From: Candidatus Poribacteria bacterium
Lineage (GTDB): Bacteria > Poribacteria > WGA-4E > JAJDTR01
NCBI GenBank assembly: GCA_028820655.1
Contig: JAPPIK010000006.1
Coordinates: forward strand, 108,841-172,840
DNA: 64,000 nt
Direction: 5' to 3'
Shown here: one piece after another, positions 2,689-51,211 of the stretch
How positions within the stretch are numbered: position 1 is the first letter of the stretch
Layout of the letters: each line of letters begins with the position of its first letter
The notes under the pieces: model-generated
Seen by the model: the letters and a program-made list of their open reading frames with translations, nothing else
Database searches by the model: none
Told to the model about the DNA's origin: nothing
Position numbers and translations under genes: made by a program

Positions 2689-3012
2689 ATGATAGACATC
2701 ATTCTCCTCACGCTCAGCACTCTACTACTGCTCGTGTCTCTGATATTGTGCCTGAAAACCGTGAAGCGTTTTCGAGGACGCTTCCTGCTTATCACTATCG
2801 GAACCGGCGCGGTTGCCGGGATCCTCGGCAGCCTCGTACTAAATATGTGGGGCAAGGTCGTATTGTCAGTGGTCGTCGCCATCCTGTTCGTTTACATCCT
2901 GGCAGTTCTGTTGCTCGCTGGCGAGCAGATACCTCCGCCCCCCGTAACGTTAACAATGCGTCAGCAGGTCGAAACTGCCGCCGCAGATTTATTAGACATC
3001 TTTCCGAAATAG
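2689..3012 (+). CDS. Small membrane protein with three predicted helices
   Basis: The 107-residue product begins directly with a hydrophobic helix (about residues 2-22) followed by a basic patch (KTVKRFRGR). Two more helices lie at about 31-51 and 56-78, then a Pro-rich linker (GEQIPPPPVTL) and a short soluble tail ending in LLDIFPK. The topology would put the tail on one side of the inner membrane. No family is recognised. The start has only weak ribosome-binding potential (ACCG before ATG), but the perfect -10 box about 100 bases upstream supports expression. A long open frame on top of it in another phase is treated as a shadow. Confidence 0.55.
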   Translation: MIDIILLTLSTLLLLVSLILCLKTVKRFRGRFLLITIGTGAVAGILGSLVLNMWGKVVLSVVVAILFVYILAVLLLAGEQIPPPPVTLTMRQQVETAAADLLDIFPK

Positions 3013-3235
3013 CTCGCCGCAGATATGGTGATCTCGTTGATTAAAATAACTATGCAATTTGATGCCTTCTCGAGGCACGCCTTCGGTGATGTGAAAAACC
3101 TCACACCGTCTGACGATATGACCATGGTAACCATCTTGTGGCGTCAACCGTTGATTGAATTACTCATTCCCTGAATCAAGGACTGGCTCCGATGTGCCTT
3201 GATGGGCCTGGAACATACAGTTTGGCTGTGCCATG

Positions 3236-3500
3236 ACAGCCGCTGTCACGCCGACTTTTCTTCCCTCCCGCAACTTGAAACTTTTAGATTGACAACTTAA
3301 CATGTATGTGGTATATTATAACCGATCGCCCGTCATGGCGGTGAAACTTTTTTTTGTTGACATCGTGTTGCTATTGCGATTCCTGAGAACCCGCTTCGGC
3401 AAAGGGATTCTTGATTTTAAATCATGCTAACTCGCCGCTAAAATCAGCGCTCCATTAGCATCTCTTTCCACTAAATCGCCTCAATGAGAAAATACGGGGA
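3236..3500 (+). repeat. Copy A of a promoter-bearing ~260-bp duplicated element
   Basis: This stretch matches 22720-22985 (other strand) over its whole length by eye. Shared blocks include CTTCCCTCCCGCAACT, ATTGACAACTTAACA, GTGGTATATTATA, CGATTCCTGAGA and CAATGAGAAAA. It carries a consensus promoter at 3289-3317. About 18 bases after the -10 box is an ATG (3335) opening a 31-codon frame ending at 3430, with a hydrophobic middle (IVLLLRFLRTRF) and no Shine-Dalgarno site. The same peptide trace is readable in copy B but is broken there by a TGA. It could be the remnant of a short gene, the end of a mobile element, or a small-RNA gene. The 23-nt dispersed repeat begins exactly at its 3' end. Confidence 0.6.
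3289..3317 (+). promoter_or_regulatory. Consensus sigma70 promoter in element copy A
   Basis: TTGACA (3289-3294), exactly 17 bases, TATATT (3312-3317). The -35 box is perfect. No convincing long gene follows for 1.2 kb, so the transcript is either short or non-coding. Confidence 0.65.
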
Positions 3501-3621
3501 TCAAGCGAGTGGATAGATCAAGTGACCGAATAAGGAACGCAATAGAATTCCAGCGAGTGAGTGAATAGCGAACGATCAAATGAGCGGATAGCGAATGCGA
3601 TAGAAATCCCGTAGAATTCCC
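3499..3621 (+). repeat. Dispersed 23-nt-unit repeat, compound copy
   Basis: A truncated unit at 3499 is followed by a unit at 3516 whose tail GCAATAGAATTCC begins exactly 23 bases later (3539). Another unit begins at 3574 with tail GCGATAGAAATCCC exactly 23 bases later (3597), then a second half-tail GTAGAATTCCC. This is the longest copy in the window. Confidence 0.75.
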
Positions 3622-3642
3622 ATACATCACAGTTCAGACAAT

Positions 3643-3936
3643 GTGGATTACCGGCACCCAACACTAACCATATTTATTTTGGAAAACAAACCATTTGATT
3701 GCCGAACTTCCCAATCACTGTTACCGGATGAGCGAAGAAATACGGCACACCGGCAAAATGAATTCGCAAGCAAGTTTCACTTAACGGCAGAAAATGTGCG
3801 TGATTCTTTGCGTGAACGAGAAATCGAAAGGTTTCCAGATAACGTTCAAAGGCTGCGAGATATTTTAGACGGATTGAGTTTGCAGCCCGCCATCACCGGT
3901 GAAAAGCGCACTGACTTAACTCAAATTAATGAATAG
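3643..3936 (+). CDS. Doubtful small ORF in repeat-rich gap
   Basis: A GTG-started frame of 97 codons. The second half looks protein-like, with a charged helix-prone stretch (AENVRDSLREREIERFPD) and then LRDILDGLSLQP; the first half does not. There is no ribosome-binding site and it abuts the dispersed repeat. It may be the remnant of a gene whose 5' part has been lost, or chance. No family is recognised. The next 670 bases up to the histidine kinase hold another repeat copy (4043-4124) and nothing else I can support. Confidence 0.2.
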   Translation: MDYRHPTLTIFILENKPFDCRTSQSLLPDERRNTAHRQNEFASKFHLTAENVRDSLREREIERFPDNVQRLRDILDGLSLQPAITGEKRTDLTQINE

Positions 3937-4042
3937 TTGGTAAAAAAAGTGAAAAAAGTAATCGACATCTTTCCTGATTGACCCGAGCTGCTGCCGCTTG
4001 AAAATCGATCGACCGAGTGGTTTGCGAGCGCGGTAGAGCTCC

Positions 4043-4124
4043 GGCAAGCGAGTGGATGGCGAGTGATCAAGGGAATGGATAATGACTGATCAAGCGAGTG
4101 AATAGCGAGCGCGATAGAGATCCC
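4043..4124 (+). repeat. Dispersed 23-nt-unit repeat
   Basis: A partial unit is followed by full units starting with GATCAA at 4065 and 4088 (exactly 23 bases apart) and the tail GCGATAGAGATCCC at 4111, again exactly 23 bases on. Confidence 0.75.
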
Positions 4125-4608
4125 ACACGTTGCAACTTGCATTAACCAAATCACGAGCATTCAGAGGCACCAAGCAGGAAATTGAGTGGCTACGCAGGTT
4201 AAGAGGCACCGAAGAAAATCCTCCTAGGCTCTCGAATGTGCATTGCGTCCTTGGTCCCCCCAACATCGTGAAACAAGTCTGATACGAATGACGCTATTAT
4301 CGAAAGATGTCTATTGCATTGGCACCACCAAGATTCAAGTGACTTGCCCCGCGTTGACTTCGCTTTATTGCGGCACACAACACCGGATACAATGCATAGC
4401 GATATTCTATAACTACGCATATTGGCTTTGGCATCGAAACCGCCTAATACCGATGACAACCAGTGCACTCCCACGCTCTCAGTCTCTTTTGTAATCCCGA
4501 GTTCTTGTACTGGGCGCGAAAGTCGCGAAATCCTCAAGGCGCAGCCAACCTGGGTATTCAGATCGCTTGGAGTGTCCAAATAGTATGAATTGAAGGGGCC
4601 ACCAGACC

Positions 4609-6357
4609 ATCAAACTCCACCACAAAATCTTCCTCACTTACACCTCACTGTTCCTCATAACCGTCGGCGGCATATTCGCGATTGCAAGTTACTTTATACG
4701 CGCCGCATTTGACGAGCAGATCCGCGAAGAGGCGGCGGAATTCAAAACGCGCATCTCTGAAACGAGCAATTCCCTCGTCGCGGATATCGAAGAGAAGGTC
4801 GAAACCGAAAGATCCGACCCGGATGTGGTGCGCGCCATCAGAAACCGGGAAACGCGCCCGCCGACGATTCGAGACACGGCACTTCAGATTCTTGAGTACG
4901 GAAACGCCGATGGCCAAGTCATCGCCAGCCGACTAGATTTGGACTTTCGCCGGGGCGAGGTTGACTGGGAAGCTCAGGCACGCGCGGAGAACAAAACCCC
5001 CAAATCTGCGATACGGTTGAGAAAGTCGCCGCGCGGCGAAAGCGGCTCATCCGAATCTGCAATCGAGGTCACCCTGCCGATCAAGGCGGGCGAGAAAATC
5101 TTGGGTTTTGTCACGGGCGGCTATTTCTTGCGAGACCGACTTCACCGCGCGCTGAGAAATCAATCGCGGCATACGGTGTATCTTCGCGAAGCGGATGAGT
5201 TAATCCCTCTGAATCAGTCTGAAGATGTCACACCCCTCGAAAAAGATAATCTGCTTGAGGCCGCCGGCGAGGGCAAAACCGGCGTGTTCTCGAAGATCAA
5301 GCTTGATAACATGCCGCACAGTGTTATTCCGGTGGCGCTGCCGACGTTGACGTTAACTTCACCTATTGAGTTGATTATCGCGTATTCCCACGAGAACGAA
5401 ATTCGGTTGCAGCGCCAGTTGACTCTGATCCTTTTTGTCGTCGGGGCAGTCGGGCTACTGTTCGCTTATGTTGTCAGCTACCTCATCGGTCTCCGGATGA
5501 CCAAACCGATTCATCAACTCACGGCAGGCGTAAGCCGGATTGCGTCCGGGGAACTCTCTCACCAACTTGATGTGCACACCCGGGACGAAATTGGCCAGCT
5601 CACACAAGGCGTCAACCAGATGGCGACGGATCTGAAAACCAATCTGGAGCGGCGAATCAGCGCCGAACGCGTCGCCGCCTGGCGGGATGTGGCGCGCCAG
5701 ATTGCCCACGAAATTAAGAACCCTCTGTTTCCCATTCGTGTCTCCGTCGAAAACCTTCAGAAAGCGCGCTCTCAGCCCGAAATCTTCGACGCCATCTGCG
5801 ACGAATGCACAGAGACTATCATTGAAGAGGTCGACCGGCTCCAGCGGATGGTGGACGAATTCCATCAGTTCGCCCGGCTGCCCCTTCCCGATCGTAAGCC
5901 CTCGGACCTCAACCAAATCGTCGAACACACACTGAATCTGTACTCCCAATCGCTGTCGGGGGTTCAGATCGAGCCCGACCTACATCCCGACCTGCCTCTC
6001 ACCTCTATCGACCCGGAACAAATTGCCCAAGTCTTACAGAATCTTATCAAAAACGCAGTGGAAGCCATGCCGGACGGCGGAACTTTGAGAATTTTAACGC
6101 AACCGATGGACGGAGGCGGGGTTGCGGTGGAGGTTCAGGACACCGGTATGGGAATGTCGTCGGAAACGCAGCAGGAGATATTTACCCCGTACTACACGAC
6201 AAAGGATACCGGGACTGGCTTGGGTATGGCGATTGTGCAACGAATCATCACCGATCACGGCGGAAAAATCTCTGTGACGAGCGAGAAAGGGGTTGGCACT
6301 CTGATACGTCTGGAGTTCGCGAATCCCAACGCAGTAGGAGATCAAGCAAGCGGATAG
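4609..6357 (+). CDS. NtrY-like membrane sensor histidine kinase (non-canonical start)
   Basis: The open frame runs from a stop at 4591 to 6357 and encodes a first membrane helix (FLTYTSLFLITVGGIFAIAS), a periplasmic sensor region, a second helix near 5413-5490, a HAMP linker (MTKPIHQLTAGVSRI), a HisKA domain with AHEIKNPLFPIRVSVEN (phospho-accepting His codon 5707-5709) and an HATPase domain ending with GTGLGMAIVQRI. The linked HAMP, HisKA and NPLFPIR pattern is typical of NtrY-type kinases. The first ATG/GTG-type start (4825) would delete helix 1. The best-placed start is ATC at 4609, 10 bases after AAGGGG, giving 582 residues beginning with IKLHHKIF. Either this is a rare AUC start or the start codon has been mutated. 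No response regulator lies beside it. The last codons fall inside a dispersed repeat. Confidence 0.85.
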   Translation: MKLHHKIFLTYTSLFLITVGGIFAIASYFIRAAFDEQIREEAAEFKTRISETSNSLVADIEEKVETERSDPDVVRAIRNRETRPPTIRDTALQILEYGNADGQVIASRLDLDFRRGEVDWEAQARAENKTPKSAIRLRKSPRGESGSSESAIEVTLPIKAGEKILGFVTGGYFLRDRLHRALRNQSRHTVYLREADELIPLNQSEDVTPLEKDNLLEAAGEGKTGVFSKIKLDNMPHSVIPVALPTLTLTSPIELIIAYSHENEIRLQRQLTLILFVVGAVGLLFAYVVSYLIGLRMTKPIHQLTAGVSRIASGELSHQLDVHTRDEIGQLTQGVNQMATDLKTNLERRISAERVAAWRDVARQIAHEIKNPLFPIRVSVENLQKARSQPEIFDAICDECTETIIEEVDRLQRMVDEFHQFARLPLPDRKPSDLNQIVEHTLNLYSQSLSGVQIEPDLHPDLPLTSIDPEQIAQVLQNLIKNAVEAMPDGGTLRILTQPMDGGGVAVEVQDTGMGMSSETQQEIFTPYYTTKDTGTGLGMAIVQRIITDHGGKISVTSEKGVGTLIRLEFANPNAVGDQASG

Positions 6358-19164: not shown

Positions 19165-21291
19165 TCAAACGACATGCTCCCTCCCGCCAACGGCAACAGA
19201 GTGGAAGTCAACCCTCCCCTCTGTGCAAACCAAAGCTACACTGCCGGTTAGCAGCGGGCGATCCGTGTCCGAACACTCCAAGACGACATTGCCTTCAATG
19301 CGGGCGACCAAGTTTTCGCCCACCGCCTCCAAGCTCAGTTTGTAGTCCGTGTCCCAATCCCAAGCGAATTCTTTCGCCGCAAGTTCTGTCCTGCCGTCTA
19401 GCTCCTTGATCAGGCGCGCCTTCCCGTTGCCGCAAAGCAGGAGCGCGTAATATCGCTTGAGGCCCTGAACACACACCGCGATTCCGGCCTCCTTGGCTAG
19501 ATGCGGACTGACGGCAGCGGAAAAGGAATAGTTCTCCCACTCGCGAGTCCCCTGAATAAATAAACCCGTGTCGTGGTTCTGCATGAGGCGGTAGGCTTCC
19601 ACATCTGCTCTATCGGTAATCGCCTGGTCAACCGCGTCGATCCATGCCCGTTTCCACATCGTGCCGCCCGAAGATGGTTTGATTAACGACACTTCCGGCG
19701 TGCCCTCCCAAGTTAGGTAATCAAGGTATACAACGCCGGACACTCCGGCGTCCGAACTTACTTCAATTCCTACAGCGGCGATTGGGGCACCATCCGTCGG
19801 ATCCACTCGCCAGTTAAAAAGTCCCTCCTCTCCCGGTGATATCTCACGCGTTTCGCCCCGACGCAGGACCAAAGCGTCATCCGCTCCGTAGACCTGAATG
19901 TAAAGCGTACACGTCACCGTCTGGCAATTTTCCTCGTCTGCGGTTAAGCGTGCTTGAACTGTTTGCCCCGAATAGAGTGTAGGTGACGCAATCAACTCAT
20001 ACCCGGGCATTTCAATGGCTTCGGGCGGAATGAAGGTCGGCGTCGCCACGCGCGCCATTCTGCCGACTGCCAGTTGATTGTATCGGATAGCCAGGCTGCG
20101 GTTACCGCTGGCGCTATGACCGACGACGTTTTCGATGACCGCGGTTCCGTCGCTTTCCGGGCTTTCCTCTAGCATGAAGCCCTGTACCGATCCCGGGAGT
20201 TCAAAATGGAATCGCGCACCGTTCTTGGGGGATTCAATCGGTTGATTCGCCAGCGCACGTGCCGCCTTACTGATTGTATATGTCTCGCGCACCGCATCCG
20301 TGACGGCGCGTCCTCCGTCGGCGGCAGAAATATACATCCTGTCCGCAACAGGGCGGCGCCAATCGGGACCTGCGTCAATCCCCGCCAATCCGTTCTTGAT
20401 TCCCATGATGCATCCGACATTTCCGGAATTGCAGTCCGTATCCCAGCCGCACGTGTTCACGATGGTCAGGGCGCGCTGGAAGTCATCCTCACTGTAGAGC
20501 AGAGCGAGTATTATCAAAGCGTGATTCGGCACCATGTGTACATTTCCGCCATACTTGTCATAACCGTAATCGGCTACGATTCGCTCCCGTGTCAAACGCC
20601 AGTCGCTATCCCGCTGATGCCAGTCGCGAAGATCGTCGATGAGTCGGCAAATCACCGAATCTCTGGGAATGAAACCGACCGCAGTATCCAGCAGGTTGTC
20701 GATGTTGGATTCCACGAATGCCTGCGCCTCAATCGCCGCTACGACTTGCGCGCCGTAAATAGCTTCTCCGTCATGGCTAACACTCCCGGCTCGGCGCGCA
20801 AAATCAGCGGCAAGTTCGGGGTCACCGGGACACGCCATTCCCCAAGCATCGATAAATATCTGCGCGCCTATCTGCTCGGCCACGACTTGACTATTCAACT
20901 CGATTGAACCGCTCTGCGGCGCGGGCGTGCCAGCCTTGAGGCGCAGAAAGGCGGTGTGCTCAGTTGAATTGCCCATGCCGCCCCACCAGAGGATCGTCCT
21001 CCCTTCGATAATGTAATTGAGCCAGGACTGACCAATCTGTTCAGCCGTTAGTTCGCAGTTGTCACCATAATCTTCCAACGCCCGGAAAAAAGTGAAAGTG
21101 CCGGAGATGTCGTCGTCCGTGACAATCAGCGGCTTGTTCAACCGTTCGTGGACATAGTAGTTGATCTCTCCGAGATCTGCCATGATTTGGTCGTACGTCC
21201 AGTTTTCAAAGGGGCGTCCGAGGTAGACGCCAATAATTTTGCCAAGAACGCCGGCGTATAAGCGCTCCTCATAGTCATTGGGTATCATCAA
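19165..21291 (-). CDS. ADP-ribosylglycohydrolase fused to C-terminal beta-sandwich/LamG-like domains
   Basis: Residues about 8-340 of this 708-residue protein form an ADP-ribosylglycohydrolase (DraG/ARH-type) domain. The paired metal-binding motifs are TDDDISGT (58-65) and DTDCNSGNVG (284-293), and HDGEAIYGAQ lies between them. Such domains bind two Mg ions and cleave ADP-ribose from proteins or nucleosides. Residues about 365-530 look like a beta-sandwich, and 540-708 resembles a laminin-G/concanavalin-like lectin domain (SFSAAVSPHLAKEAGIAVC, then YYALLLCGNGKARLI). There is no signal peptide. AGGAGG stands 12 bases before the ATG. The lectin-like domains hint at a glycan or carbohydrate-linked substrate, which is inference. 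The gene is single, with long gaps on both sides. Confidence 0.85.
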   Translation of the reverse strand: MMIPNDYEERLYAGVLGKIIGVYLGRPFENWTYDQIMADLGEINYYVHERLNKPLIVTDDDISGTFTFFRALEDYGDNCELTAEQIGQSWLNYIIEGRTILWWGGMGNSTEHTAFLRLKAGTPAPQSGSIELNSQVVAEQIGAQIFIDAWGMACPGDPELAADFARRAGSVSHDGEAIYGAQVVAAIEAQAFVESNIDNLLDTAVGFIPRDSVICRLIDDLRDWHQRDSDWRLTRERIVADYGYDKYGGNVHMVPNHALIILALLYSEDDFQRALTIVNTCGWDTDCNSGNVGCIMGIKNGLAGIDAGPDWRRPVADRMYISAADGGRAVTDAVRETYTISKAARALANQPIESPKNGARFHFELPGSVQGFMLEESPESDGTAVIENVVGHSASGNRSLAIRYNQLAVGRMARVATPTFIPPEAIEMPGYELIASPTLYSGQTVQARLTADEENCQTVTCTLYIQVYGADDALVLRRGETREISPGEEGLFNWRVDPTDGAPIAAVGIEVSSDAGVSGVVYLDYLTWEGTPEVSLIKPSSGGTMWKRAWIDAVDQAITDRADVEAYRLMQNHDTGLFIQGTREWENYSFSAAVSPHLAKEAGIAVCVQGLKRYYALLLCGNGKARLIKELDGRTELAAKEFAWDWDTDYKLSLEAVGENLVARIEGNVVLECSDTDRPLLTGSVALVCTEGRVDFHSVAVGGREHVV

Positions 21292-21776: not shown

Positions 21777-22332
21777 CGCTCAAGGCGCGATTCACTCTCC
21801 GGACACTGTAATAGACATCTTTCCAGAATATTAAAAGTCGTATCGGAGTATTTTCCGAGCGTTGAGCAGCCACAGGCGAGAATGAACGATTGATAGATTT
21901 CGGCGATTCGGTTAAGGTTATTCGTCTGCTTGCCCTTCATTTTCCCGTGCGGAGGGCAGATATTTCCGTGATTTAATCAATTCAGGCGCTTTCTTTCGGG
22001 ATTCTTGATGCGCGGAATCTCTATCGGAACTTTCTGTTTCCCGTGACTCGCAATCGATCTTCCATGGTTGACGGTTACACTGGTTCTTCACCTTGGTTTA
22101 CGTGATTCAATTCGGCGTGCGATGCCGGATGTCGTCGCAGACGATGGCGATTCGCAAAAATCGGCCTGGAATCCAGTGATGACGCGGGTTTGACGGGTTT
22201 GGAGCGCCATGCGATGCTCTGCGATATACTGCGAATATATTTCAACGCGTCTCCTCCCGCTTAGCCAAACTATGTGGAGGGCGACGATATAAATTCGATC
22301 TGATTTCATAGAGTTGCAACACTTGACATCGT

Positions 22333-22430: not shown

Positions 22431-22719
22431 AGGTCGTTGCGGCATAAAACTCGGCTTCGAGACTTGAGCGCACAACTCGGATTGGCTCTGAAATTGCGCT
22501 TGACGCCTTACGGGGCGTAGCTTGAAGCCGTTCGCGGCACGCTGCATGGTAGTGCGCTAATGTGCGCTCATACATTTCACCTCACATTTCTAAGAACGCT
22601 CGGACAGCGGTTTCGGAAGTAATCATGCGTCTGTAGATTTTCCGAGCATAAAGTGTCTCTAATTCCGGTCATCTTTTATCTCAATGAACGCTTGGATTTC
22701 CGCTTGCTTCCCGCCGTTT

Positions 22720-22985
22720 TTTCTCATTGGACAGGTGCAGCGAAGAGAGTCGGCGAATGAGCGTCGGATTGAGCGACGTGTTGGCATTCCCTGAAATGGA
22801 TTTCTTATGTTGAAGCAGGCTCTCAGGAATCGTAGCGCCATCAAAATGCCAATAAGTGATCAAAGTTGCGCTGCCATATCGGTCGCTTGGTATAATATAC
22901 CACACACCTGTTAAGTTGTCAATATAAAAATAACGAGTTGCGGGAGGGAAGAAACGTTGGCCGACGGCGGTCGTACCATTACTCT
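22720..22985 (-). repeat. Copy B of the promoter-bearing ~260-bp duplicated element
   Basis: Read on the - strand this matches 3236-3500 from upstream of the promoter (CTTCCCTCCCGCAACT) through CGATTCCTGAGAGCC to CAATGAGAAAA. The promoter is kept exactly, while the short peptide frame of copy A carries a TGA here. From the internal ATG at 22844 a 61-codon frame remains open. The promoter and a few downstream blocks are better preserved than the reading frame, which argues for an RNA or DNA role, or for ongoing decay of a coding element. Confidence 0.6.
22894..22922 (-). promoter_or_regulatory. Consensus sigma70 promoter in element copy B
   Basis: On the - strand: TTGACA (22922-22917), 17 bases, TATATT (22899-22894). 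Both boxes and the spacer length are identical to copy A. Confidence 0.65.
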
Positions 22986-23019
22986 AAGATTTCGGTGCGT
23001 AATTGGCAGATGGCGTGAA

Positions 23020-23325
23020 TTGGAATCGTGATTCGGAGATCCCTCCCACAGCGGGGGATCGGGATTCGGAAATCCCTCCTACAGCGGGGGGCGGGATTTG
23101 GAAATCCCTCCCACAGCGGGGGATCGGGATTCGGAAATCCCTCCCACAACGGGGAATCGTGACCTGGAGATCCCTCCTACAGCGGGAGATCGGGATTCGG
23201 AAATCCCTCCCACAACGGGGAATCGTGACCTGGAGATCCCTCCCACAGCGGGGGATCGGGATTTGGAAATCCCTCCCACAACGGGGAATCGTGACCTGGA
23301 GATCCCTCCTACAGCGGGGGGCGGC
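23020..23325 (+). repeat. Nine-copy 33-bp tandem array
   Basis: Nine units whose CCCTCC core starts at 23041, 23074, 23106, 23139, 23172, 23205, 23238, 23271 and 23304, so the period is 33 bases with one 32. The unit runs roughly GGGGATCGGGATTCGGAAAT then CCCTCCCACAGCG. From the fourth unit on, two variants alternate (ATTCGG/ATTTGG versus ACCTGG before the core), giving a 66-bp higher-order repeat. The unit resembles single dispersed palindromes such as that at 51059-51090. There are no spacers, so this is not CRISPR. The open frames through it are an effect of the multiple-of-three period. Confidence 0.9.
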
Positions 23326-23337
23326 AGACTTTGAAAC

Positions 23338-23366
23338 TTGACATCTGTCAATCTGAATGCTACAAT
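23338..23366 (+). promoter_or_regulatory. Predicted sigma70 promoter of argC
   Basis: TTGACA (23338-23343), 17 bases, TACAAT (23361-23366). It lies between the tandem array and argC. Confidence 0.65.
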
Positions 23367-51163: not shown

Positions 51164-51211
51164 GATCAAGCGAGTGAATAGCGAGCGCGATAGAATTCCC
51201 ATAGAAATCCC
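51164..51211 (+). repeat. Dispersed 23-nt-unit repeat
   Basis: A unit begins GATCAAGCGAGTGAATAGCG at 51164, with the tail GCGATAGAATTCCC exactly 23 bases later (51187) and a second half-tail CATAGAAATCCC. This is the most consensus-like copy; it ends 33 bases before the next gene. Confidence 0.75.

What the first reader, a model, noticed from the sequence alone, without database searches (positions are those of the whole stretch)
3236..3500. Twin ~260-bp elements with identical strong promoters and no clear gene
3236-3500 (+) and 22720-22985 (-) match along their length and both have TTGACA-17-TATATT, the strongest promoter pattern in the window. The shared downstream part has a possible 31-codon peptide (3335-3430) in copy A that is broken by TGA in copy B, while other blocks (CGATTCCTGAGA, CAATGAGAAAA) persist. 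This could be a small RNA, a dying short gene, or the end of a mobile element. In copy A the 23-nt repeat starts at its 3' border; copy B is also followed by a repeat copy on the same strand.
Basis: partly seen in the sequence, partly recalled or inferred. Interest (0 to 1): 0.66.

Follow-up and report, generated by a model that had tools for sequence, protein, structure and literature searches.

The report
Mobile promoter carrying a switch-like RNA
The two 260-bp "twins" are worn copies of a small mobile element, present about 40 times in this Poribacteria genome, that carries a strong promoter and a previously undescribed RNA able to fold in two mutually exclusive ways, and that always points at the next host gene.

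Summary
Observation confirmed, interpretation partly. The twins are two degraded members of a repeat family: about 41 RNA-core copies in this Candidatus Poribacteria genome, 15 in its congener, 1 and 8-9 in genomes of other families of the order. They are the centre of non-autonomous transposons: copy A spans 2993-4313 between IS5-type inverted repeats. The same promoter-plus-RNA cassette also sits inside MITEs with unrelated ISAs1-type ends. There is no reading frame. The ~125-nt core has a T-run, two 9-nt sites spaced 11 nt apart, a conserved AACCCGC...CAAAGG loop, an inverted site 3 and usually a site 4. Site 3 can pair with site 2 or with site 4. Both helices show compensatory changes; one pair takes all four Watson-Crick forms across subfamilies. 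In the genus the next gene downstream is co-directional in 49 of 49 scorable copies, although those genes are diverse. Three divergent copies lie 9-25 nt behind a two-gene operon whose first product resembles phage terminase small subunits. Best reading: a mobile promoter/leader cassette with an attenuator-like RNA. A trans-acting small RNA remains possible, and some copies in one relative look stand-alone. No Rfam, phage, plasmid or viral-contig match was found. No expression data exist.

The parts
2993..4313 (+). Copy A: whole non-autonomous element, IS5-type terminal repeat to terminal repeat (1,321 bp)
   Evidence: TIR matches at both ends in inverted orientation; same TIR 50+49 times in the genome against 4+5 for the reversed-pattern control
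2993..3010 (+). Left terminal inverted repeat TAGACATCTTTCCGAAAT
   Evidence: 0 mismatches
4296..4313 (-). Right terminal inverted repeat, 2 mismatches
3289..3317 (+). Promoter TTGACAACTTAACATGTATGTGGTATATT
   Evidence: 29/29 to family consensus, 54 nt upstream of the core; 97% mean pairwise identity in its 30-nt block among ten long-form copies
3343..3492 (+). RNA core of copy A
   Evidence: covariance model R2, 134.5 bits
3355..3363 (+). Site 1 (TGTTGACAT)
   Evidence: read from sequence against alignment A3
3366..3374 (+). Site 2 (TGTTGCTAT, degraded in this copy), 11 nt after site 1
3385..3412 (+). Conserved loop GAGAACCCGCTTCGGCAAAGGGATTCTT
   Evidence: AACCCGC..CAAAGG or a variant of it kept in all four subfamilies
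3424..3432 (+). Site 3 (ATGCTAACT), inverted; partner of site 2 or of site 4
3453..3461 (+). Site 4 (CATTAGCAT); hairpin with site 3 followed by CTCTTTCC
22719..22866 (-). RNA core of copy B (site 4 degraded)
   Evidence: model R2, 91.8 bits
22894..22922 (-). Promoter of copy B TTGACAACTTAACAGGTGTGTGGTATATT
   Evidence: 27/29 to consensus
21812..21829 (+). Surviving 3' terminal repeat of copy B
   Evidence: 1 mismatch
4825..6357 (+). First gene downstream of copy A, co-directional: histidine kinase
   Evidence: Pfam HATPase_c, HAMP, HisKA; orientation
19165..21291 (-). First gene downstream of copy B, co-directional: ADP-ribosylglycohydrolase family
   Evidence: Pfam PF03747, 2e-57

Best explanation
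The feature is a mobile promoter-plus-leader-RNA cassette. Shown by sequence: non-autonomous elements of two unrelated IS families (IS5-type and ISAs1-type ends) carry a homologous sigma-70-type promoter and a homologous ~125-nt core that keeps two mutually exclusive helices (site 2:site 3, and site 3:site 4). In this genus every scorable copy is oriented so that its transcription would run into the next host gene. Inferred (about 0.4): the RNA works in cis as a transcription attenuator. When site 3 pairs with site 4 it makes a hairpin followed by a U-rich stretch that stops transcription; when site 3 is held by site 2 (or 1), transcription continues into the host gene. A factor that binds the conserved AACCCGC..CAAAGG loop or the tandem sites would set the balance. 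The downstream genes share no pathway, so the signal would be general, or serve the element itself, not a metabolite of one pathway. Further inference (about 0.3): the RNA came from, and may still answer to, the two-gene terminase-small-subunit-like operon behind which divergent copies lie.
For: Copy number and models. IS5-type TIRs and partner. ISAs1-type TIRs and partner (NF033564, 1e-124). Core more conserved than flanks in the ISAs1-type elements (0.84-0.95 per 30-nt block against mostly 0.5-0.8). Site 3:4 helix 94% of cells paired with 44 double changes; 2:3 helix 95% with 45; slid controls 22-31% and 18-50%. Within one genome the three sites read A/T/A or G/C/G together in 26 of 32 copies, 0 of 100,000 permutations as concordant; repeated changes on a tree. 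Across three subfamilies one 2:3 pair takes all four Watson-Crick types and three more pairs change on both sides. Orientation 32/32 own, 13/13 congener, 4/4 extra. Divergent copies 9-25 nt behind the operon.
Against: No transcript data. The U-run after the 3:4 hairpin is short in many subfamily-1 copies (CTCATTTC). Subfamily 3 lacks site 4, and five of its eight copies face a gene in the opposite direction, four of them ending in a strong hairpin, as expected of a stand-alone RNA. Distance to the downstream gene is often 0.8-2.5 kb. Folding energy is not unusual for most copies (z from -2.7 to +0.6). Promoter-only copies, without the RNA, are also co-directional in 15 of 16 cases, so orientation may reflect the promoter alone.
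Confidence: 0.62

Rival explanations
1. A multicopy trans-acting small RNA. Promoter, ~140-235-nt RNA and 3:4 terminator form a complete transcription unit spread by MITEs; the conserved loop pairs with or titrates a partner.
For: Promoter at a nearly fixed distance from the core within each subfamily. Four subfamily-3 copies are followed by a strong hairpin and face opposite genes. The loop is the best-conserved sequence across four subfamilies.
Against: The total orientation bias toward downstream genes in the genus is not needed for a trans-acting RNA with a good terminator. Terminators in subfamilies 1 and 2 look weak.
Confidence: 0.25
2. A DNA-level element: the repeated 9-mers are binding sites for the terminase-small-subunit-like protein ORF1 (packaging-site-like or an operator), not RNA helices.
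For: ORF1 matches phage terminase small subunits (phrog_6299, 7e-17), whose family binds repeated DNA sites (own knowledge). Sites 1 and 2 are direct repeats 11 bp apart, about one helical turn. Divergent copies lie behind ORF1-ORF2.
Against: Within one genome, hence with one set of proteins, sites 2, 3 and 4 change together inside a copy, which pairing predicts and a shared degenerate protein motif does not. A promoter upstream and transcription in a constant direction are not needed for a DNA site. Viral relatives of ORF1 carry no core.
Confidence: 0.1
3. Ordinary parasitic MITEs. The promoter and fold are relics; orientation reflects loss of insertions that would drive antisense transcription.
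For: Promoter-only elements, several of them with the same TIRs, show the same bias (15/16). Several copies, including both window copies, are degraded at sites 2 or 4.
Against: Core conservation above the flanks, compensatory changes maintained over several subfamilies, and carriage by two unrelated IS families are not expected of a relic.
Confidence: 0.15

Closest known systems
Pneumococcal BOX, RUP and SPRITE repeats (PMC3049150)
   Same: Short non-autonomous interspersed repeats with extensive RNA structure, co-transcribed with neighbouring genes
   Different: Different sequence and host; here a strong promoter is part of the element, two exclusive helices covary, and the same core sits in elements of two IS families
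Correia/NEMIS, ERIC and other bacterial MITEs (review PMC2229807)
   Same: TIR-bounded small mobile sequences; Correia elements carry putative promoters and an IHF site; ERIC and NEMIS RNAs affect adjacent transcripts
   Different: Those fold mostly as long stem-loops; here the structured part is internal and switch-like, and the direction relative to the next gene is fixed
Transcription attenuators and riboswitch-like leaders (own knowledge)
   Same: Mutually exclusive antiterminator-like and terminator-like hairpins downstream of a promoter, upstream of genes
   Different: Mobile, no common pathway downstream, no match to any Rfam family
IS5-family and ISAs1-family MITEs
   Same: TIRs shared with transposase-bearing elements in the same genomes
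   Different: Carry a conserved non-transposon cassette common to both families
OMEGA (TnpB/IscB) and IS110 bridge RNAs (own knowledge)
   Same: Conserved non-coding RNA tied to mobile DNA
   Different: No such gene was recognised next to the copies examined; the operon ORFs found beside some copies are of other kinds; no guide identified

Membership tests
IS5-family MITE (copy A, subfamily 1) | Terminal inverted repeats matching those of an IS5-like element in the genome | tested here: met
   partner ORF has HTH_Tnp_4 and DDE_Tnp_4 but scores NF033581 below its cut-off and is frame-broken
IS5-family MITE (copy A, subfamily 1) | No transposase gene inside | tested here: met
   Only short frames (up to 126 aa) in 2993-4313, none called as a gene
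IS5-family MITE (copy A, subfamily 1) | Target-site duplication or empty site | not tested
   Both terminal repeats begin with TA, which fits a TA duplication; no empty site was compared
ISAs1-family MITE (subfamily 2) | TIRs shared with an ISAs1 transposase element | tested here: met
   L168 TIRs at 397 and 1646, transposase NF033564 1e-124
Known Rfam RNA family | Covariance-model match at gathering score | tested here: not met
Transcription attenuator | Two mutually exclusive helices, both conserved | tested here: met
   (subfamilies 1 and 2; subfamily 3 lacks site 4)
Transcription attenuator | Terminator hairpin followed by a U-run | tested here: inconclusive
   TTTTT in many subfamily-2 copies, CTCTTT or CTCATTT in most subfamily-1 copies
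Transcription attenuator | Condition-dependent read-through into the downstream gene | not testable with these tools
   No expression data
Metabolite riboswitch | Downstream genes of one pathway | tested here: not met
   Histidine kinase, ADP-ribosylglycohydrolase, GroEL, ribosomal protein S6, Der GTPase, permease and others
Protein-coding short gene | Conserved reading frame | tested here: not met
   T-run length varies between copies

The most novel reading that the evidence does not exclude
The RNA is the nucleic-acid half of an undescribed mobile RNA-protein system: a terminase-small-subunit-like protein (ORF1), a protein of unknown family (ORF2) and the RNA form the complete unit, and the dozens of promoter-RNA copies are satellites that were captured by two kinds of MITE and now act as switchable leaders of host genes.
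Probability: 0.15. Interest if true: 0.85.

Novelty: new variant of a known kind. Interest (0 to 1): 0.6.

Why it matters
Bacterial MITEs are known to bring promoters or structured RNA, but here one conserved promoter-plus-switch cassette is carried by two unrelated transposon families and sits, always facing forward, before dozens of unrelated genes. If expressed, it would be a case of transposons wiring many genes to one regulatory RNA in an uncultured phylum, and the link to a phage-terminase-like operon gives a concrete candidate for the trans-acting partner.

Tried and rejected
Rfam at gathering and permissive thresholds: no family, only chance hits. Plasmid, phage and viral collections: no match. 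Genome contigs pattern: two Halomonas hits; the one read lies in unrelated sequence, and only the Poribacteria hit shows the element. Peptide: rejected, no conserved frame. Metabolite riboswitch: rejected, diverse genes. Inner hairpin between sites 3 and 4: no single register of pairs fits all copies by eye. Site 1:site 3 helix: weaker (15 double changes, 87% paired). Conserved origin in the operon across the phylum: the only other ORF2 homologue, in G027 (33% identity), has an ORF1 but no detectable RNA. The 213-bp ISAs1 MITEs as a neutral orientation control are imperfect, because they sit mostly between divergent genes. Paper searches for Poribacteria transposons, MITE attenuators and terminase-linked RNAs gave nothing on this element.

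Full report
The window lies in a 5.88-Mb genome (G000:C22:108841-172840). Its nearest searched relative, G001, carries the contig of a record named Candidatus Poribacteria (L031 and L038 hold the same element), so the host is taken to be a member of that candidate phylum.

Observation. The two stretches match as described. Searching the genome with copy A gave 23 long matches, 70-87% identical apart from itself, plus about 17 short matches, nearly all to the promoter alone. Aligned in one direction, the copies share a very conserved promoter, TTGANAACTTAACANNTRTGTGGTATATT, and a core of about 125-150 nt that starts with a T-run. The T-run length varies, so no reading frame is conserved. A covariance model built from 21 copies found 39 matches at E <= 0.1 in the genome, 14 in the congener and 1 in a genome of another family. 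A broader model raised this to 41, 15 and 1, plus 5 weak ones in a further genome, where BLAST then showed 8 copies. A sequence-only model of four subfamilies gave 41, 15, 1 and 9, plus three marginal single hits elsewhere.

What carries it. In the congener most copies are about 565 bp long with terminal repeats AGGGGAAACGCATCTRA. An element with the same ends encodes an ISAs1 transposase. In the window genome the ends are TAGACATCTTTCCRAAAT, found 50+49 times against 4+5 for the reversed control; an element with these ends encodes a broken IS5-like transposase. Copy A is 2993-4313; copy B has lost its left end. A third element type, about 715 bp, has the IS5-type ends and the promoter but not the core. 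The same promoter and core are therefore carried by mobile frames of two unrelated transposase families. One ISAs1-type insertion (L115 and L179) is shared at the same place by both species, with flanks about 91% identical, so at least that insertion predates their split.

The RNA. Four 9-nt sites recur. In subfamily 1 they read TGTTGGCAT, TGTTRGCAT, ATGYYAACA and CGTTRGCAT; in subfamily 2 TGTTAACAT, TGTTCACAT, ATGTGAACA and CGTTCACAT; in subfamily 3 TGGTTACCT twice and AGGTAACCA, with no fourth site. Sites 1 and 2 are 11 nt apart, start to start, in the three subfamilies. Pair counts on 48 distinct sequences: helix 3:4 is 94% paired with 44 doubly changed cells, helix 2:3 is 95% with 45, and slid controls fall to 22-31% and 18-50%. 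That alignment was fitted to the 3:4 helix, so those counts lean towards it; a MAFFT alignment of 21 copies gave the same picture on fewer changes. In a 29-sequence alignment read by register, every subfamily 1-3 copy keeps 8-9 of 9 pairs in helix 2:3, one pair occurs as A-T, G-C, C-G and T-A, and three others change on both sides. Subfamily 3 needed a one-base shift of register there, chosen for best pairing. Within the window genome, where all copies meet the same proteins, the central letters of sites 2, 3 and 4 are A/T/A or G/C/G in 26 of 32 copies; no permutation of 100,000 was as concordant, and the state changes repeatedly on a tree of the rest of the core (at least 10 changes by parsimony, not all of them clean switches). 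Relatedness of copies is not removed by the permutation. This argues for intramolecular pairing over a shared protein-binding motif. The two helices compete for site 3. In nine full-length subfamily-2 elements the core is 84-95% identical per 30-nt block, the promoter 88%, and the rest mostly 50-80%. Single-sequence folding energies are unremarkable for most copies.

Context. Using a hexamer-based gene caller trained on long frames of the fetched loci, the next gene downstream is co-directional in 32 of 32 scorable copies of the window genome and 13 of 13 of the congener, and in 4 of 4 further copies: 49 of 49. Upstream genes are mixed, with many same-strand pairs and no case of the reverse orientation. 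Promoter-only copies show 15 of 16, so the promoter alone may explain the bias. The downstream genes are diverse: histidine kinase and ADP-ribosylglycohydrolase in the window, and elsewhere GroEL, ribosomal protein S6, Der, a DUF6807 protein and a permease. In the subfamily-3 genome only 3 of 8 copies face a co-directional gene; four of the others end in a strong hairpin, as a stand-alone RNA would.

Possible source. Two divergent copies, L258 in the window genome and L175 in the congener, lie 9 and 25 nt behind a two-gene operon. A search of 85 genomes with ORF2 found a third such locus in the congener, again with a core 11 nt behind it by the gene-caller coordinates, and a 33% homologue elsewhere without a detectable core. 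In the L258 and L263 copies the tandem sites read TGTACCTA and do not pair well with site 3, while the 3:4 hairpin remains. ORF1 matches phage terminase small subunits, and eight viral contigs encode relatives but no core. ORF2 matches no family. In the congener, the L175 core has the same site sequences as that genome's MITE copies. Whether these proteins act on the RNA is untested.

Judgement. That the twins are MITE-borne copies of a conserved promoter-plus-structured-RNA cassette is well supported. That the RNA works as an attenuator of the following gene is the reading I consider most likely, mainly from the exclusive helices and the orientation, but it is inferred. A trans-acting small RNA is the main rival. 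The closest described things are bacterial MITEs with structured transcripts, such as BOX/RUP/SPRITE (PMC3049150) and Correia/NEMIS and ERIC (PMC2229807). No resemblance to a described RNA family was found, within the limits of the libraries searched.

Noticed in passing
window 3494-59356, e.g. 3516-3611, 4007-4125, 51164-51201: A degenerate 23-38-nt dispersed repeat (GATCAAGCGAGTGAATAGCGAGCGCGATAGAGATCCC), about 16 copies in the window on this strand plus inverted ones, often in tandem pairs 23 nt apart; also visible in loci of the congener and of other families of the order.
   Followed up: no
window 22994-23351: Tandem array of a ~33-bp unit (GGGATTTCCAAATCCCGATCCCCCGCTGTGGGA-like), nine overlapping copies, beside copy B.
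   Followed up: no
L150 269-985, L151 284-998: Third MITE type of ~715 bp with the IS5-type ends and the same promoter but no RNA core; its interior resembles the right part of copy B's element.
   Followed up: partly
G001 contigs, e.g. C89:43605-43838: Numerous ~230-bp ISAs1-type MITEs, mostly lying between divergently transcribed genes.
   Followed up: partly
L038 6140-6320 (- strand): A core copy interrupted by an insert with ends GTTCAGTC and GGACTGAAC and a duplicated AAAATGSTAAC flank: another small mobile element.
   Followed up: no
L110 and L177: Elements of different subfamilies stand upstream of the same orthologous transporter gene in the two species, with different flanks.
   Followed up: partly
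L247-L253 (G004), 40-80 nt upstream of the core: Palindrome ATGCTAA..TTAGCAT just after the putative -10 box in most subfamily-3 copies, possibly an operator.
   Followed up: no
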